Positions 1,325 through 10,600 of a DNA stretch of 64,000 bases are shown in pieces (the stretch's first letter is position 1; every line of letters starts with the position of its first letter). Under the pieces are notes generated by a model that did no database searches, was not told where the DNA came from, and saw only the letters and a program-made list of their open reading frames with translations. Source of the stretch: Opisthocomus hoazin (Eukaryota; Chordata; Aves; Opisthocomiformes; Opisthocomidae); assembly GCF_030867145.1 (NCBI RefSeq), contig NC_134440.1, positions 4,154,001 through 4,218,000 on the forward strand. Direction: 5' to 3'. The translations under genes were made by a program, and so were the position numbers.

Positions 1325-1343
1325 ACTACAACCCCCAGCATGC
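1325..1343 (+). promoter_or_regulatory. ZNF143/Staf (SBS)-type motif
   Basis: The bases ACTACAACCCCCAGCATGC closely match the ZNF143/Staf consensus I know (ACTACAAYTCCCAGCATGC). The site lies between two divergent genes, where such motifs are often found. Binding is inferred. Confidence 0.75.
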
Positions 1344-1441: not shown

Positions 1442-1631
1442 ATGGGAAGGGCGAGGCCCCGAAGGCACAAGGCTGAGGCCGGAGGTGTGAGGGTGGCGGC
1501 GGCGGCTGGGCTGAGTGGGCGCGGTGGCGGAGCCCCGGCTGCCGTCGCGCTGAGGCTGGCCCTGCTCCTCGGGGCTGCGCTGGGCTCTGCCCGGGCTGCG
1601 GTGTATTTCCAGGAGCAGTTTCTGGACGGAG
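1442..1631 (+). pseudogene. CALR3: CALR3 exon 1 (signal peptide region)
   Basis: A hydrophobic signal-like core, LRLALLLGAALGSARA, is followed by AVYFQEQFLDG, which matches calreticulin AVYFKEQFLDG. The donor is GGACGGAG|gtgggg, phase 1. The only in-frame ATG is the first base of this feature. It adds about 34 residues before the core, whereas the family starts about 17 to 20 residues before AVYF. The normal initiator therefore seems lost. Confidence 0.75.
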
Positions 1632-1693
1632 GTGGGGCGAGGGCAGGGGGGCAGCTGCCGGTAATGGCCGTGCGTGTGTGAGTGGGAGGGGAG

Positions 1694-1870
1694 GGACTGG
1701 AACAGGCTGCCCAGGGAGGTTGTGGAGTCTCCTTCTCTGGAGATATTCAAGACCTGCCTGGACAAGGTCCTGTGCAGCCTGCTCTGGGTGACCCTGCTTT
1801 GGCAGGAGGGTTGGACTGGGTGACCCACAGAGGTCCCTTCCAACCCCGACCATTCTGTGATTCTGTGACT
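1694..1870 (+). mobile_element. CR1 LINE 3' fragment in CALR3 intron 1
   Basis: A 5'-truncated CR1 3' end, from GGAACAGGCTGCCCAGGGAG to the tail ATTCTGTGATTCTGTGAC. It is closely similar to the CR1 copies in CALR3 exon 3 and EPS15L1 intron 1. Confidence 0.9.
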
Positions 1871-1928
1871 GCACCGTGCTTACTGACTCGGTTCTTGTGG
1901 CGTTGCTGGTGCTGGCCTGGCGGGAGAG

Positions 1929-2030
1929 CCAACTGGCAGCAGAGGTGGGTGGATTTGGAGCGCAAGGCAGACCTTGGGAGGTTTAAACTCACCGCTGGGA
2001 GGTTCCACGGAGACCCGGTGCGAGATAAAT
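1929..2030 (+). pseudogene. CALR3: CALR3 exon 2
   Basis: 102 nt, open, encoding NWQQRWVDLERKADLGRFKL and then TAGRFHGDPVRDK. This corresponds to calreticulin SRWIESKHKSDFGKFVLSSGKFYGD. The acceptor is GGGAGAG|CC. The donor reads AAAT|gtgcgt, where the expected last exon base G is T, so it is weaker than usual. Confidence 0.8.
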
Positions 2031-2167
2031 GTGCGTGGGTTTCATTAAAAATATGCTAAGGGAACCATCTTGAGAGCTTGGGATTTGCTGTGCATGGCAA
2101 TGAAAGTATTTTTTCTTTGCGAATGGAGAAAAACATAAGTTTTACTATTGCACTGATGCCTTCCCAG

Positions 2168-2558
2168 GTCTACAAACTAGTGAAGGTTATAAATTTTACG
2201 CTATCTCCTCATGATTTAAACCATGTAGTAACAAAGGGAAGACTTCTTCCCTCTGAGGGTGACGGAGCCCTGGCCCAGGCTGCCCAGGGAGGCTGTGGAG
2301 TCTCCTTCTCTGGAGATATTCCAGACCCGCCTGGACGCGGTGCTGTGCAGCCTGCTCTGGGTGACCCTGCTTGGGCAGGGGGTTGGGCTGGGTGACCCTG
2401 CCAACCCCAACCATGCTGGGATTCTGTGACTCTGGTCATTCAGTATACTGTGAAATATGAGCAGAAAATAGATTATGGTGGGGGATACGTTAAGATTTTT
2501 CCCTCCAACTTGGACCAGAAGAACCTGAGTGGAGATTCACAACATTACATCATGTTTG
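2168..2558 (+). pseudogene. CALR3: CALR3 exon 3, broken by TGA and a CR1 insertion
   Basis: The left part reads LQTSEGYKFYAISS, stop, FKPCSNKGK. The right part resumes at TLVIQYTVKYEQKIDYGGGY and ends at YIMFG with donor TTTG|gtgagt. The acceptor is CTTCCCAG. The TGA at 2212-2214 replaces the codon before FKP, where family members have a sense codon. A CR1 fragment splits the exon between Lys and Thr of GK-TLV. Without it the exon is exactly 204 nt, so nothing was lost at the insertion point. The insert shifts the frame and adds stops. Confidence 0.88.
2242..2428 (+). mobile_element. CR1 LINE 3' fragment inside CALR3 exon 3
   Basis: A 187-bp CR1 3' end in sense orientation, starting at CTTCTTCCCTCTGAGGGTGA and ending at GGGATTCTGTG. 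The bases GACT occur at both junctions (2241-2244 and 2428-2431), so there is a short direct repeat or microhomology and the exact edges may shift by up to 4 bp. Compared with the intron 1 copy it lacks a short internal segment near its end. Confidence 0.9.
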
Positions 2559-3004
2559 GTGAGTTTATAGTTGTTTACTCATACTACAGTACTGTCGCTT
2601 CTGCAGTTGTGGAAATGGTCGAAAAAAAATAAAGGAAGGCTGTCTTAAAAAAAATAAAGGATGTTGTGACTGTAAGGCATTAGCTCTTCCATGCTTGAGA
2701 GATCTCTATTTATTAACAAAATATGTATTTGTGGAAACATTCTGAGCTGATTTGAAGGACATAACTGAAGATTATTAGAGTGAGCTTAGAATAAAAGTAG
2801 TTGTTCAGCAACATTTTTTTTTTAAGACCTTTAACTGAAGCAACATACTGTAGGCCATTATCTGCCCTTATATACTGATATTTAATTTCCAGTGACTTAG
2901 TGAAATTTGTACATTTATATGTCAAAGTGAACTTTGTAATTATGTATCCAATGTAATTATACTGTTATTCATCTTGTGCCGTAGATAATTTTTATTTTGC
3001 CTGG

Positions 3005-3150
3005 ATTTTTAGCTTCTGAATAACAGTAGGAGGCCTGATTAACATCTGTTTAATGAAATGGACATGTTCAGAGACCTCTGAAGACATCTGTGAACATACA
3101 GACTGTTACCAAAAGTATCAAAACCACGCAAAATCTAATTCTAAGGTAGA
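3005..3150 (+). repeat. Copy A of a direct repeat shared with EPS15L1 intron 1
   Basis: The core CTTCTGAATAACAGTAGGAG and the following bases through GTTTAATGAAATG recur almost exactly at 8747-8793. The part starting ACATGTTCAGAGACCTCTGA recurs after a CR1 at about 9006. This copy has no CR1 and shows the empty site. The repeat family is not recognised. Confidence 0.8.
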
Positions 3151-3315
3151 CTTAGAGACTTTGAGTAGAAGTCACGTCATCCATTAAAAATGGAATGGAA
3201 TACATCAAAATGCGTGGAATGGAAGAGATGTCTAGCAGTATTAGAAGGAAATGGTAAACAATCTGTATTTTTCTGCAAAGAAGTTAAGGATACAAAGCAT
3301 ATAATCTCTTTGCAG

Positions 3316-3410
3316 GGCCAGATATTTGTGGATCTGAGACAAAGAAAGTGCATGTTATTTTAAATTACAAGAATAAACCCCATCCAATCAGGAAACCAAT
3401 CAGATGCAAG
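3316..3410 (+). pseudogene. CALR3: CALR3 exon 4
   Basis: 95 nt, open, encoding PDICGSETKKVHVILNYKNK and ending PIRCK. It matches calreticulin PDICGPGTKKVHVIFNYKGK and IRCK. Acceptor TTTGCAG, donor GCAAG|gtaaat. The lectin-domain PDICG motif is kept. Confidence 0.85.
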
Positions 3411-4169
3411 GTAAATACACATTTCAAAGATACATAAACTTTAAAATAAACAAGTTACAGGAGTATTAGGAAGAAGAAAAAACAAACCAAAACCCCAGAC
3501 AACTGTTCCAAACACGTAACACCTTTGAGTAGTTCTACTTTTCATCGTGTCTTATGTTAATTTTGGGATTTCAGATATTTTTTAGTTTATGATACACTTG
3601 CAATTTAATGATTACATTTGTAATAACTGATACTGATACAGGATGGAAGAAGGTTGCAATGGTGCTGTATGTTATTAAGAAGTGTTTGTGCTTCTTAATT
3701 GCAACTTTAATGCCACTTTTTCTAGTGAGGAAGTGCTTTCTCGTAATACAAATGTAAGATCCTGGCAATGTTTTAAATTTTTTTACTTTTAACCTATGAA
3801 GTAAGCCTTTTTATGTGCTTTTGCAGTAGCTATTTGGTATATAAATAACTTGTATTTGATATTAACTAAAATAATTACTTTATCTGATACTGTTTTCAAT
3901 CTTGTGACGATTCTTGCCAATCAGATATAGAGTGTGTTTTCTTGCAAACATTTAGTTTTGTTCAGAGACCCAGATGGGAGGACTGGAAAATATATGTGAA
4001 AAATGTCAATTTTATTTTCCCCCTTTATGAGACTTTGGAAATTATTTTTTCTTACTACTGCTTATGAAAAATCCATTAGAAATCAGTATTATATTTCTGG
4101 TACAAGGCAGTTCCTAAGAGCTATACTTAAGGTTCTTAAAAAATTTTACCTGCTTTCTTTAAAACCCAG

Positions 4170-4379
4170 GTTGATGGATATACACATCTATATTCTTTGA
4201 TTATAAGGCCAGATCAGACTTATGAAGTAAAAATTGATAACGAAATGGTCGCATCCGGAAACTTAGAAGATGATTTGGATTTTTTGCCACCGAGGAAAAT
4301 TAATGATCCAACGATGAAGAAACCCACTGACTGGGATGATCGAATCCAAGTTGATGATCCAAATGACATCAAACCTGGG
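4170..4379 (+). pseudogene. CALR3: CALR3 exon 5
   Basis: 210 nt, open, acceptor AAACCCAG, donor CCTGGG|gtaatt. It encodes HLYSLIIRPDQTYEVKID, then DFLPPRKINDP and the first P-domain repeats (TDWDDR). The family's DDWDFLPP is DDLDFLPP here, a change at a strongly conserved tryptophan. Confidence 0.85.
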
Positions 4380-4497
4380 GTAATTTCCTCTTCTTTTTCT
4401 GTGGTGCTGGATTATTTCATTTCTACTGAATGCATATTTGAGATAGTTGAACTGTGCACGAGCTTTGCTTTCTTAATCTTGCTGTGCCTTTTTAAAG

Positions 4498-4611
4498 GAT
4501 TGGGATGAACCCGAATACATCATGGACACTAGTGCTGAGAAACCTGAAGATTGGGAGGATGCTGTGAATGGAGAATGGCATTATCCTGTGGTCAAGAATC
4601 CTCTATACAGA
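4498..4611 (+). pseudogene. CALR3: CALR3 exon 6
   Basis: 114 nt, open, acceptor TTTAAAG, donor TACAGA|gtacaa. It encodes P-domain repeats DWDEPEYIMD and KPEDWEDAVNGEWHYPVV. Confidence 0.85.
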
Positions 4612-4699
4612 GTACAAATAATTTCATAATCCTAGCTATGGATAGCACTTTAAGCAACTTTTCTTTGTATGACTGTATTCCAAACGTGGTTTATCCTAG

Positions 4700-4843
4700 G
4701 GTGAATGGAAACCAAGGCAGATAGATAACACAAATTATAGAGGAGTTTGGCCTCATCCACAGATTGACAATCCAAATTACTCACCAGACTTCAGTATCTA
4801 CAGCTATGAAAATATTAGCATAATTGGACTAGGTCTCTGGCAG
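4700..4843 (+). pseudogene. CALR3: CALR3 exon 7
   Basis: 144 nt, open, acceptor TATCCTAG, donor TGGCAG|gtgaga. It encodes [30 protein letters not shown] and ends GLGLWQ, matching the end of the P-domain and the return to the lectin domain. Confidence 0.87.
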
Positions 4844-5458
4844 GTGAGATGCCTTTACTGGAAAATAAAGAATTTTTCTCTTTCTGAGTATATAGCAACT
4901 TGTTTACCCTTTACATATAAACATTATCTATTGTTTTGGGATCTTAGGGACCTATATCTTTAACACACTCTTATGTAAATATATGTATAAAATTGAAGAA
5001 TCTGTAAGACGCACCGATCTTCTGTTGTAGTTACTGGTTGAATGCTACTCATCTGCAGGTAAGTAATTTGTGTAAGTATTATAAAGTATGATTTACTCCA
5101 CCTGACCTGAGGTGTGGAACCGAGGCTTTGAGCAGCTCAGTTACTCCTGACTTACCCGAAGATTAACAAGGAGAAAACTGTCCTCTGGGGTGCCTCAGAT
5201 CGTCCTCTCTCTTGGATTTCTTGACTAGCCAGTGATGAGACTTAAAACTTCTTAAAGAGCAGTGAGGTCCCTGAAGTTAAAACAAGTTCTTTAGATTCTT
5301 GAAAACAGTTGTCCAAAAAGAGAGAATTCTTCATCAAATTCTGCAAAAATCTTTGGGGTTCTTAACATGCTTATATCGAATATATAATACATATTTTAAA
5401 AAAACCAAAAAAATATTACAAAGAGGCATCCTCATTTTTTTTCCTTATTCCTTCAAAG

Positions 5459-5551
5459 GTGAGAGCTGGCACAATTTTTGACAACTTCTTGATAACAGAT
5501 GATGAGGTTTGTGCAGAAGACTTTGGAGATGAAACATGGGGAGAAACAAAG
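5459..5551 (+). pseudogene. CALR3: CALR3 exon 8
   Basis: 93 nt, open, acceptor TTCAAAG, donor ACAAAG|gtaaca. It encodes VRAGTIFDNFLITDDEVCAE and FGDETWGETK, matching calreticulin VKSGTIFDNFLITNDEAYAE. Confidence 0.87.
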
Positions 5552-5657
5552 GTAACATGAAATCGTTGTGTCTGGTTTGGTTCTTTATTACCAGATTTTA
5601 AAAATCCCCTGTCTAATCTGATCGAGAACCTATTGGTGCATAAAAATTTAATATTAG

Positions 5658-5843
5658 GGTCCTGAAAAGGAAATAAACATAAAGCAGACTGAGGAAGAGC
5701 AGGGTAGAGGAAGAGTTACAGAAGAAAAATACTTTCAGCAACGGTTTAAAAAAAAGCTAGGAAGAAAAAAATCTGGAAAAGATAGAGCAGTGAGGAACAC
5801 TATCGAGAAGGAAGAGCTTGAATTGTTGTGTGAAAGAAGTTAA
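5658..5843 (+). pseudogene. CALR3: CALR3 exon 9, basic C-terminus without an ER-retention signal
   Basis: After acceptor AATATTAG the frame runs 61 codons to TAA. It starts GPEKEINIKQTEEEQ, turns basic (FKKKLGRKKSGK) and ends LLCERS. There is no KDEL or HDEL and no long acidic tail. Whether intact bird CALR3 ends differently is not known to me. Confidence 0.75.
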
Positions 5844-7340
5844 CTTTTTTTTTTACTTAAATCTCTCTGTAGAGATTTTGATAGTTTCTTAACAGCTTGT
5901 TGGAATCTGCAGTGATACAGTTGTATTAAAACAGGATTTTTTTAAAAAATTCAACACTAAATTTTGTGACCACTTTCAGTTATGTTTACTAAAAATACCA
6001 TAGCATTTAACTTCTATATAGAAATGTTATTTTTTTATTAACTGTATCTTAACTGTGCTAAAATGTATTAAAAGCACCTCATAAAGCACTAGGTTTTGGA
6101 ACTGTTTTACACTTTCATGGCTTAATATTAAATGTAAAATTTATGCTCACTTTTGTTGAGGAAATATAATAAGCTTTTAGTGATATTAAAGGGTTTGGCA
6201 TGTCAAATGTGTGAAGTGTGTTTCACAACATGCTTCAAACTAAGGAGGAGATAAGCTTTGCTAAGCTTCTGTAGCCATTGTGCACCTGTCAGAGTTTCGG
6301 GGATTGCTGCAGCTGTAAAGTTGTCACAAACGCACCAGGGCTGCGCTGGGCTGTTCTGCCGTTGCTTGTCTGCCGGTGGAACATTCTAGTGCTCTGTCTC
6401 CAGTGTGGGACCTGCGTGGCAGTAGGCTGTCCAGCGACAGATCTGTCCTTAAAAGTTTAAATGGATTCAGACAATTTTTTCTCATTCAAAAGTCTGAAAT
6501 GAATACATTCAATGCCTGGAAGCTGGCTTAAAGTTGTTGGTTTTTTTGTTTTCTAATAGGGTGGGTGGAGGAATTTGAAACAGTGAATGGCGTGCCTACT
6601 TTTCCGTCTGACCTCTCTTGTAACTCACTCTCATAACTTGTTCAGTCACTTCAACCCCTCTCAGGTCCTTCTGCATTCCCCCCACCAAAGGACTAATGCT
6701 ATAAATTTAGCAAAAACTGAAGGCGGTCTTCCAGAGCCAATGGTTTTGGTGTTGTGTGGGAGGATCTGGGGAAGCCCCAACTTCAGCTGGGCCAGTTTCT
6801 AGCTTGCGGAGCAGCGGAGGTCAAACTCTTTTGCTTCTGCTTGTCTGAGTGCTGTCCCCTGTGAAACAATTCCCATGACGCTGTGGGGTGAACTCTAAAG
6901 CTATCGAAATACACTGTAATGACAGTTGCCCTTTACCTTTTTTCCCTGAACAAGTTCCTGCAGGTTTGGCTTTTATATGACCCTGTTGATCTAGCCTCGT
7001 TCAGGCTGCTGCTCAGTATTTGCACATTCCAGGCAGAGATTTGTTAACTTTGTTATTCGATGTCGCGTATTTCATCATAAACCAGAGGAAGCTTAATTTG
7101 ATGCAGTCTGTTTTGACAAGGTTTAGTGTAATGAAGTAAAAATAACGAGGTTTGTCCAGGAGGAGGTTAGAGGCAGGTCATCCAGCTCAAAGGCCGATCA
7201 GTGCCTGGACGCGGTTACCTGGACGAATATTCCCCAGGGCAGCTGCAGTCTTCCCTAGACCTACTTTGCCCACCACGTAGGTAGGTCACCGCCAGCTTCG
7301 CCTGAGGCAGCTGGAGCAGAGCCATGTCTGGCAGCAGGGG
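5844..7340. other. CALR3 3' region and intergenic DNA before EPS15L1
   Basis: AT-rich at first, with a possible ATTAAA polyadenylation signal for CALR3 at 6127-6132, then mixed composition. I see no gene, exon or clear repeat. Confidence 0.5.
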
Positions 7341-7619: not shown

Positions 7620-10600
7620 GTAAACCGGCCCGGCCCGCCGGTGGCCGGACCCTGCTGGGGGGTGGGCGGCTGAGGGGAGACGCGGCCCTCGGGGCCCAGC
7701 GGTTGAGCCCCGCTCGGGGAAGGGGGAGCGGGCTCTCCCCGGCACGGGTCCCCCTCCCGCGGGCGGGTGCATCCGGGGCCGGGTCGGCGCTGGGGCATAG
7801 GCCCTGCCTCTCGCCGCGGCCGGGGGGTGGCTCGGCCCGCGGGGGGTGGTGCGCGGCGGGGAGCGGGCCCCGGGCGGGGGTGAGGGGGGCGAGGAGCCCC
7901 CGGCTGGCCCCACCACCGGGCTGGGGCTGAGCCTCCCGGGGGCGGCTTCTGTGGGGGGCACAAAAGGCGCTGCCGCCTTCCCCTCATGGAGGCCCCGGAG
8001 CTGTCCCGCGGGGGAAGGGGCTGGGCAGCCCCGAGGCTTCCTGAGCGCTTTCCCTCCCGGGTTTGAGCTGCGGGGATTCACGCGGGCCGGGGTCTGCGGT
8101 GCGGGGCTGGGGGCAGAGCTCCCTGCTCGGGGCTCTGACCTGGGGCAAGTCACCCCGTTTTCCGGCTGGTGACACGGGGTCGGTGCCGCCCGCGGCTGCT
8201 GGGGCGTCGCGGCAGTGCTGGGTGCCGGGGCGGTGCCGGTGAAGGACTCGGTGTGAAGAGGAGCTTTTCCCTCAGCAGCAGCAGGAGGAGAAAGACCCTG
8301 AGCCCTGGAGCGTGGCGTGTCCTGCGAAGAGGCTGCGCTCCGAGCTCTGGCGCAACGTGTGCCGTCCTTGGGTAGAATTTTGCTGCTGTTACAAGTTTCT
8401 TTTTAATTAATTTCTCACCCGAATAATTTAAACCTAAACAGCGTGATCGCTGTTTATTCTTTTCCATGCTCCTGTGAAGACAGTTTACTTATTTCCTTTA
8501 AAGCAAAAGAAAAGCACCATCACCCCCCAACGCCTTGAGATTAGAATTATTTTCTACGCTGCGCCTAGGCCGGCTATTCAGAACAACCGCTATTGGCAGT
8601 TCAGATTATTTAAATATATCTATTTCCTTTTGATAATGGTCTTTTATTTGTGAAACTCTGAGAGTTTATCTTGCAGTGGAGTTATGTGATGCTTGGGTAA
8701 TACATAGTTTGCTGTGCGTCTTATTAAGAGCGTGCTGCTTTTTAACTTCTGAATAGCAGTAGGAGGCCTGATTAACATCTGTTTAATGAAATGAATCACA
8801 GAATGTTCGGGGTTGGAAGGGACCTCAGTGGGTCACCCAGCCCAACCCGCTGCCGAAGCAGGGTCACCCAGAGCAGGCTGCACAGCACCGCGTCCAGGCA
8901 GGGCTGGAATATCTCCAGAGAAGGAGACTCCACAGCCTCCCTGGGCAGCCTGGGCCAGGGCTCCGTCACCCTCAGAGGGAAGAAGTTCTTCCTCGGGTTC
9001 AGACGAACATGTTCAGAAACCTCTGAAAACATTCGTGCACATGCAAACTGTTATCAAAAGTTTTCAAGTGAAGTAATGTGGTGCAAAATATGTATTTAAA
9101 GTAAACTGGACTCAAGAGAGCTCGTTGTGGAACTTCTACAGTACATTGGTGAAAATGTATCAAATTTTGATTATACTCAAAATCCTTCCTCTGTGGTGTT
9201 TAAATTCCAACTGATATTTCAGAGATTGGCCTCAATGTTGTTGTGGGGGTTTTTTTATAACATATTATGTTGAGGGAGAAAGGGCTGCATTCTGTGAACA
9301 TATCAGTTATTTTGACATACTATTTTCCAGCTAATTCGGTGGAAGCATTCTAGTTTTAAATCTTCTTTTTCTATGTTGAACTGTCAAAAGTAATCTAGCT
9401 GTAATCAGGGCATAAACAGAATTTCCCTGGAAATTGCTAAACTTCCTCTTTTAATAGCCTCAGTTTCATGATTGCTATAAAGAATGTGCTAGTTATAATT
9501 GATGCCACAAATTGTATTAAAAGGAATGGAGGAGGGTACATGTGCTGTAATGTTGAAGCATGTTCACTCAAAAAAATATGAGAAGAATACTGATACCAAT
9601 GTTTTAGGAGCTATAAACAGTATGGGTAATTCAAGCATGTGGAAGTGTTTAATCATACTTGTTTTCATAAATGAATTTTAGTATGTTGTCCTTATCGTTG
9701 TATGAAATTACATTTTTATGAAAGAGAATTTAGATGTCTAATGTACAGTATGCAAGCTATTTAACGTTTCAGCTGTCTTTGTTTCAACTGGCTATGCATA
9801 AAAACAGTTGAAGACTAAGCATGTGAAATCGGTTCTTGAGTTAACAACTGAAACTGGATTGGATTTATCTTTGATAACTTTTTTTTCTTGAATATTTGAT
9901 CACCTTATCAGTGATCTTTCCACTGTGCCAGGCATGTTCAACCTACAGCCTCTGAAGGTTATGGAGAATTACGTTAGAGATATTGGGATATCATTTTGTA
10001 GCTCAGTCTTCTGAGACACATCGGGATACTCGGCAAGTAGAGTAAGGGCAAAGGTATTCTTTCTGGGGCAGCAGCAACCTTCTTTTCGCTCTCATCTTTG
10101 TGGAACACCTTTCACAGTACCTATTTTCATCCATCGTATGATGTGACAAGAGTGGCTGTAAAAAAATTCTGAAGCAGGAGGACACTAATTCACCTGATGC
10201 AGAGTTCTTGGTGGCCCTGAGATGACCTCAGGAAAGAGGGCTGCTAGGAACTGGCTTTATTGATTGTTCTGGTGGCAGCACGTTACACCTGCCTTTTTTC
10301 CAGGCCTGTGTTAAGGGGTAAGGAGACGCATCCATGTGTATGTGCTGCGTAGCACAAGTGCAGTGTACCAAGTCTGCTGGGAGAGTGCAGGTTCAAGACT
10401 TGGACTTCAAATTTGTACAGGAAATCAACTCAGAGATCAAACAACAAGGCACCAGGGTTCTGAAGTGTCTGTTCGGGAGACGGCGTAAAGTGTTGGTCAT
10501 CGATGACATTTTGGGGAATATGGAGTAGGCACAGAAAGCAGAGTTTTGTGAAATTGTAACTCAAACTGAACTGCTGTGTGACAGGTTATATCTTTTGACC

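What the first reader, a model, noticed from the sequence alone, without database searches (positions are those of the whole stretch)
2168..2558. CALR3 coding exon 3 interrupted by a CR1 retroposon and an in-frame stop
The exon's two halves read LQTSEGYKFYAISS-stop-FKPCSNKGK and TLVIQYTVKYEQK. The 187 bp between them are a CR1 3' end. Removing it leaves exactly 204 nt, the exon length I recall for calreticulin genes, so the insertion point is resolved almost to the base, with a GACT repeat at the junction. The TGA at 2212-2214 is an independent lesion and could be a CGA-to-TGA CpG transition. LINE insertion into the coding exon of a conserved chaperone gene is uncommon, and loss of a fertility-linked chaperone in a bird would be biologically interesting.
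Basis: partly seen in the sequence, partly recalled or inferred. Interest (0 to 1): 0.8.

Follow-up and report, generated by a model that had tools for sequence, protein, structure and literature searches.

The report
Bird CALR3 gene broken by CR1
In this bird genome the only copy found of CALR3, a germ-cell chaperone gene, is broken in its third exon by a stop codon and a young insertion of a CR1 jumping-gene fragment, while the rest of the gene is still open, so it looks like a gene caught soon after it died.

Summary
Exon 3 of a nine-exon calreticulin gene (window 1442-5843, +) carries an in-frame TGA (2212-2214) and a 187-base CR1 3' end (2245-2431). Without the insert 204 nt remain, the length of the uninterrupted exon 3 of the bird's own CALR, which has Arg at the TGA position. 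The other eight exons have no internal stop or frameshift, and all eight introns have GT/AG. The window's own 1.48 Gb genome shows one CALR3 locus, one CALR and two calnexin-type genes; no second CALR3. The insert is young: its one difference from the consensus of 27 sister copies is shared by 6 of them, so it has no private substitution, though it lacks 11 bases. Best explanation: recent loss of CALR3 by nonsense mutation plus LINE insertion, with nonsense-mediated decay inferred. The 'GACT repeat' is probably not a target-site duplication. Not shown: fixation, order of the lesions, exon 3 skipping (which keeps frame), or any effect on fertility. This is an ordinary kind of event (unitary pseudogene), well resolved, of modest interest.

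The parts
1325..1343 (.). ACTACAANNCCCAGCATGC promoter motif (ZNF143-type, name recalled) between the minus-strand neighbour gene and CALR3
   Evidence: Exact pattern match
1442..1631 (+). CALR3 exon 1 (coding part; in-frame ATG at 1442; signal-peptide-like LRLALLLGAALGSARA then AVYFQEQFLDG)
   Evidence: the start codon is a prediction
1697..1870 (+). Another, more diverged CR1 3' end in CALR3 intron 1, 85% like the exon insert
1929..2030 (+). CALR3 exon 2, 102 nt, open
   Evidence: same length as exon 2 of the bird's own CALR
2168..2558 (+). CALR3 exon 3, 391 nt, interrupted (204 nt without the insert)
2212..2214 (+). In-frame TGA where the bird's own CALR has arginine
2245..2431 (+). CR1 3'-end insertion, 187 nt (borders can be slid by up to 4 nt), with one perfect TTCTGTGA octamer at 2422-2429, preceded by a variant octamer TGCTGGGA
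3316..3410 (+). CALR3 exon 4, open
4170..4379 (+). CALR3 exon 5, open
4498..4611 (+). CALR3 exon 6, open
   Evidence: one search had placed its end one base early, at 4610
4700..4843 (+). CALR3 exon 7, open
   Evidence: the TAG that one search reports in its match lies in the acceptor site just before the exon
5459..5551 (+). CALR3 exon 8, open
5658..5843 (+). CALR3 exon 9 with stop; no KDEL-like end (reads ...EKEELELLCERS)

Best explanation
This is the bird's single CALR3 (calsperin) gene, recently turned into a unitary pseudogene. A CpG transition (CGA to TGA, inferred) stops translation at an arginine in exon 3, and a 5'-truncated CR1 retroposon landed 30 bases further on, presumably by target-primed reverse transcription, shifting the frame and adding more stops. 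Transcripts that keep exon 3 stop about 1000 nt before the last exon junction and should be removed by nonsense-mediated decay (inferred). The loss is young enough that the other eight exons and all splice borders have not decayed. Shown: the two lesions, the open remainder, single copy in this assembly, youth of the insert. Inferred: the CGA ancestor, decay of the transcript, fixation, and that the ubiquitous CALR covers remaining needs. The confidence given is for the broken copy having arisen in this way, fixed or not, so it overlaps with the first rival.
For: Two separate disabling changes in exon 3. 8 of 8 other exons open, 8 of 8 introns with GT and AG. Own-genome protein search with exons 4-8: 18 matches from 20 of 20 scored candidates, all at four loci (C27 = this gene, C401 = CALR, C5 and C22 = calnexin-type genes). 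Exon 3 search: 4 matches from 6 of 6 candidates: the two halves here, CALR exon 3, and one match at E 0.44. DNA 3200-6000: 1 place only. The own CALR is open over exons 2-9 and ends RDEL; its exon 1 was not located. The insert has no private substitution against 27 sister copies. Exon 3 also departs from residues shared by human CALR and recalled human CALR3 at 7 of 45 positions, among them F to C, H to Y, C to Y and Y to H.
Against: Exons 1-2 and 4-9 look functional, which alone would suggest a live gene. No orthologue from another bird, no reads and no RNA were available, so fixation, an assembly fault or an exon-skipping isoform are not excluded. Exon 3 does not stand out in radical changes against CALR (4 of 58 conserved positions, against 4 of 31 in exon 4), and exon 2 departs from shared residues more often (9 of 20). 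The insert lacks 11 nt that 26 of 27 sister copies keep in full or but for one base, and its exact junction sequence occurs only here in the genome, so it is not wholly free of change. The octamer rule does not help: one perfect octamer is preceded by a variant with two changes, which by the counting rule of PMC2612034 may count as two.
Confidence: 0.85

Rival explanations
1. Segregating allele: the CR1, the TGA or both are present only in some birds of the species, and other haplotypes carry a working CALR3. (This overlaps with the best explanation, which leaves fixation open.)
For: No private substitution in the insert allows an age near zero; the eight other exons are undamaged. In geese, stop-inducing CGA to TGA sites in WDR93 are described as polymorphic (PMC10445033, passages).
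Against: Two separate lesions on the same haplotype, plus likely damaging missense changes in exon 3, suggest constraint had already been lost. Only one haplotype is in the assembly, so this cannot be settled here.
Confidence: 0.3
2. Live gene with exon 3 skipped: splicing exon 2 to exon 4 keeps the frame (exon 3 is 204 = 3 x 68 without the insert) and gives a chaperone without 68 residues of the lectin domain.
For: The joined exons without exon 3 read open to the end. Enumeration shows whole-exon skipping plus 2 alternative acceptors, 2 alternative donors and 4 within-exon introns that keep the frame, each losing at least 33 of 68 residues.
Against: Exon 3 encodes part of the lectin sheet including the GGGYVK stretch and one cysteine of the structural disulfide (recalled from calreticulin structures). 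Exon 3's own splice borders are intact, so inclusion is expected. No RNA tested. Human CALR and the bird's own CALR keep exon 3.
Confidence: 0.07
3. Assembly or sequencing fault: the CR1 was joined in wrongly or the TGA is an error.
For: This CR1 has many near-identical copies in the genome (1745 first-look candidates), a usual cause of misjoins.
Against: The insert joins two halves of one exon with exactly 204 nt of host sequence and a normal CR1 end; the TGA and the C-to-Y change are separate; no alternative copy elsewhere. Flanking EPS15L1 exon matches show no stop inside the exons; two alignments run on into introns and meet a stop there.
Confidence: 0.03

Closest known systems
CALR3 (calsperin), testis-specific calreticulin
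   Same: Calreticulin-family protein, exon lengths as in the bird's CALR, place between EPS15L1 and a minus-strand neighbour read as C19orf44 (synteny recalled); in chicken CALR3 is among the 15 top germ-cell genes (PMC4305369, passages)
   Different: Broken in exon 3; no KDEL-like end
WDR93 and CFAP46 loss in distant birds (PMC10445033)
   Same: Lineage-specific loss of a gene in birds, including CGA to TGA stops (passages)
   Different: There CR1 is not mentioned in the main text (0 occurrences); here a LINE insert is one of the lesions
Young CR1 insertions such as that in the coscoroba LDH-B intron (PMC2612034)
   Same: CR1 3' end with a TTCTGTGA octamer (passages)
   Different: Here the insert lies in a coding exon, followed by CTCT rather than the preferred TTCT

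Membership tests
CALR3 orthologue | Calreticulin family protein | tested here: met
   PF00262 E 9.9e-50 for exons 4-9 and 1.5e-06 for the second half of exon 3; exons 1-2 alone gave no family. PDB calreticulin 8tzo_C at E 1.5e-117 for the protein without exon 3
CALR3 orthologue | Distinct from CALR in the same genome | tested here: met
   CALR is a separate gene on C401
CALR3 orthologue | Closer to CALR3 than to CALR | tested here: inconclusive
   Against recalled human CALR3 and human CALR: exon 3 49 and 43 of 68; exon 8 24 and 23 of 31; exon 4 21 and 22 of 31; exon 2 11 and 14 of 34; exon 1 part 9 and 10 of 11; exons 5-7 not compared with CALR3. No tree with bird CALR3 possible
CALR3 orthologue | Neighbours EPS15L1 and C19orf44 | tested here: inconclusive
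   EPS15L1: met, exons from about 12.8 to 28.7 kb by tblastn with recalled human protein, EH domains by Pfam. C19orf44: label and the synteny itself are recalled; Pfam gave one weak match below cutoff for that frame
CR1 LINE 3' end | Octamer TTCTGTGA at the 3' end, element cut off at the 5' end | tested here: met
   octamer definition from PMC2612034 (passages)
CR1 LINE 3' end | Dispersed family in the genome | tested here: met
   40 further matches listed, 39 of them near full length, with 40 scored of 1745 candidates. The CR1 name itself rests on the octamer and on recall of the CR1 consensus; no repeat library was searched
Unitary pseudogene | Disabling lesions in the single copy at the expected place | tested here: met
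Unitary pseudogene | Lesions fixed in the species | not testable with these tools
   One haplotype only
Unitary pseudogene | No functional product | not testable with these tools
   No RNA or protein data

The most novel reading that the evidence does not exclude
CALR3 was killed so recently that intact and broken alleles still coexist in this species, or exon 3 had already become dispensable (skipped) before the CR1 landed, so that a shortened calreticulin without its lectin core is still made in the germ line.
Probability: 0.12. Interest if true: 0.6.

Novelty: new member of a known kind. Interest (0 to 1): 0.36.

Why it matters
CALR3 is needed for male fertility in mice, where it matures the sperm protein ADAM3 (PMC4585710, passages), and it marks germ cells in chicken (PMC4305369, passages). 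A bird that has lost it is a natural knockout that asks whether this chaperone is needed outside mammals. Because the insert is young, the order of events (stop codon, retroposon, relaxed selection) could be worked out from a few related species.

Tried and rejected
Second intact CALR3: looked for by protein and DNA; none in this assembly. Old insertion with a gene kept alive around it: judged unlikely from zero private substitutions against 27 sister copies. The 27 were taken from the best matches (L002-L008 plus 20 fetched, of 39 near-full-length others); this favours copies like the insert, and L028 and L029 share flanks, so at most 26 are independent. GACT as a true target-site duplication: considered and judged unlikely. 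Octamer number as a sign of youth: dropped after recount, because the perfect octamer is preceded by a variant octamer that the sister consensus shares. Loss of the start codon (LRLALLLG begins with CTG where a signal peptide could begin) and a one-base deletion that moved the stop past KEEL: both considered, neither can be tested without another bird; an in-frame ATG lies upstream at 1442. Calreticulin in viral contigs as a source of bird relatives: none. NCBIfam: none. Predicted structure: not run, since it would not bear on the question. Species name: not determined.

Papers. On CALR3 I ran (12 papers, 12 listed; 20 of 3,494 listed; 8 of 9; 12 of 15; 10 of 23); on CR1 and gene loss (20 of 41; 15 of 512). 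From titles, starts of abstracts and the passages cited, none of those listed reports CALR3 loss in a bird. The library lacks most subscription journals, and PMC3037677 (mouse calsperin) was not held. PMC12954441 on missing bird genes names no calreticulin in its main text (0 occurrences); passages of PMC9744295 and PMC8957256 added nothing decisive.

The 11-nt deletion: the exact junction occurs once in the genome; L003 has the same deletion with one base different, so separate origin is likely but not shown. The count of copies with and without the deletion was asked for and never answered.

Full report
What is there. The window is C27:4154001-4218000 of a 1.48 Gb genome in 415 contigs. A calreticulin gene lies on the + strand at 1442-5843. 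Its nine exons are 1442-1631, 1929-2030, 2168-2558, 3316-3410, 4170-4379, 4498-4611, 4700-4843, 5459-5551 and 5658-5843; all eight introns have GT and AG (one search had the end of exon 6 one base early). Exons 2 and 4-9 have 102, 95, 210, 114, 144, 93 and 186 nt. The bird's own CALR has the same lengths for exons 2 and 5-9, and 204 and 95 nt for exons 3 and 4 by the AG/GT rule on the sequence printed (the script printed 203 and 96 because it cut one base early). Pfam PF00262 matches exons 4-9 at 9.9e-50 and the second half of exon 3 at 1.5e-06; exons 1-2 alone gave no family. The name CALR3 rests on its place before EPS15L1 (EH domains by Pfam; exons by tblastn with a recalled human protein), on a divergent neighbour that I read as C19orf44 (recalled), and on a separate CALR in the same genome. 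Sequence identity alone does not decide it: exon 3 is closer to recalled human CALR3 (49 of 68) than to human CALR (43 of 68), exon 8 slightly so, exons 1, 2 and 4 not.

The lesions. Exon 3 reads LQTSEGYKFYAISS, then TGA at 2212-2214, then FKPCSNKGKT, then 187 nt of CR1 (2245-2431), then LVIQYTVKYEQKIDYGGGYVKIFPSNLDQKNLSGDSQHYIMF in another frame. The bird's CALR reads AISSRFEPFSN at the stop, with CGC for Arg; recalled human CALR3 also has Arg, human CALR has Ser. Arg is thus the likely ancestor and CGA to TGA the likely step (inferred). 187 is not a multiple of three and the insert holds further stops in the coding frame. Exon 3 also departs from residues shared by human CALR and recalled human CALR3 at 7 of 45 positions, the stop not counted; four are notable: F to C, H to Y, C to Y (in DCGGGY, a disulfide cysteine by recall) and Y to H. 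The same count is 0 of 18 in exon 4, 2 of 23 in exon 8, 0 of 8 in the compared part of exon 1, but 9 of 20 in exon 2; exons 5-7 were not counted. Against CALR alone exon 3 does not stand out (4 radical of 58 conserved positions, exon 4 has 4 of 31). I therefore do not claim that exon 3 is specially decayed apart from the two lesions and the lost cysteine.

The insert. One search listed 41 places: the window, 39 near-full-length CR1 copies and one short piece; 40 of 1745 candidates were scored, so the family is larger than the list. I aligned 27 of the 39 with the insert. Over its 187 bases (185 if the last two are host) the insert differs from their consensus at one site (C81A), and 6 of the 27 share that variant (L004, L006, L007, L031, L035, L036). 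So it has no private substitution. It lacks 11 bases that 26 of the 27 keep in full or but for one base; L003 lacks them too, but the exact junction occurs only here in the genome. Zero in 187 gives an upper 95% limit of 1.6% divergence, or about 5-11 million years at 1.5-3e-9 per site and year; counting the shared site as one gives 2.5% and 8-17 million years (rates recalled). The sister copies were picked for likeness to the insert, which lowers the count somewhat. The end repeat is not decisive: PMC2612034 (passages) finds that coscoroba elements with one octamer are youngest, and the insert has one perfect TTCTGTGA, but before it stands TGCTGGGA, which the sister consensus shares and which that paper's rule (up to two changes) may count as a second. 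A second CR1 in intron 1 (1697-1870) is 85% like the insert, and one in an EPS15L1 intron (8830-8983, minus) is 97% over 154 bases. The GACT at both ends looks like a duplication, but GA belongs to the octamer, ACT at the left is also CR1 sequence, and 13 of 27 sister copies have CT after the octamer; a duplication of a few bases at most, or none, fits.

Is there another copy? Protein search of the own genome with exons 4-8 gave 18 matches from 20 of 20 scored candidates, at four loci: this gene, CALR on C401, and two calnexin-type genes on C5 and C22 (names of the last two from their residues and recall). Exon 3 gave its own two halves, CALR exon 3, and one match at E 0.44. DNA 3200-6000 gave one place. 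CALR is open from exon 2 to 9 and ends RDEL; its exon 1 was not located.

How it works. The first stop lies about 1000 nt before the last exon junction, so a message with exon 3 should be decayed (established for vertebrate transcripts; inferred here). Zero lesions in the 1134 coding nt outside exon 3 caps neutral divergence at roughly 1.5-3% for indel rates of 0.15 to 0.05 per substitution (assumed), which agrees with the insert's age. The picture is a gene that died recently. Skipping exon 3 keeps the frame, and nine splice choices in all (whole skip, two acceptors, two donors, four within-exon introns) keep an open frame, each losing at least 33 of 68 residues; I give a working shortened protein a low probability.

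Known or new. In chicken CALR3 is one of the top 15 germ-cell genes (PMC4305369, passages); in mice it matures ADAM3 and null males are infertile (PMC4585710, passages). CR1 expansion in the last 10 million years is reported in kiwis, geese and Amazon parrots, and recent expansions in woodpeckers and hornbills (PMC8665684, abstract and passages). Gene loss in birds with CGA to TGA stops is known (PMC10445033, passages). My searches (several with capped lists) listed no report of CALR3 loss in a bird. This is a new case of a known kind. Human ADAM3 itself is a pseudogene (PMC4585710, passages), so the pathway is not universal even in mammals, which tempers the surprise.

Noticed in passing
window 3006-3116 and 8739-9061: The same dispersed sequence occurs in CALR3 intron 3 and an EPS15L1 intron (96% and 85% in two 55-nt blocks); in the second copy the two blocks are parted by a CR1 (about 8794-9006), so the first looks like the empty site.
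   Followed up: partly
L028 and L029 (G000 C41 near 89.23 Mb and C40 near 2.12 Mb): Two CR1 copies with identical aligned sequence and identical 3' flanks on two contigs of 91 and 50 Mb, as expected if these are Z and W sharing a pseudoautosomal stretch (inferred) or of a duplication.
   Followed up: no
window 5658-5843: CALR3 exon 9 ends EKEEL followed by ELLCERS and a stop, with no KDEL-like end; a TGA lies one frame over directly after KEEL. Could be a lost stop or simply the bird form.
   Followed up: no
window 1442-1631: The signal-peptide-like stretch begins at a CTG; an in-frame ATG lies 36 codons upstream in a GCCCGCCATGG context, about 100 bases past a promoter motif at 1325-1343.
   Followed up: no
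L047 (G000 C401): The bird's CALR lies on a 261-kb contig in a stretch with 70.6% GC over 7 kb, the kind of place where bird genes are often missed (recalled).
   Followed up: no
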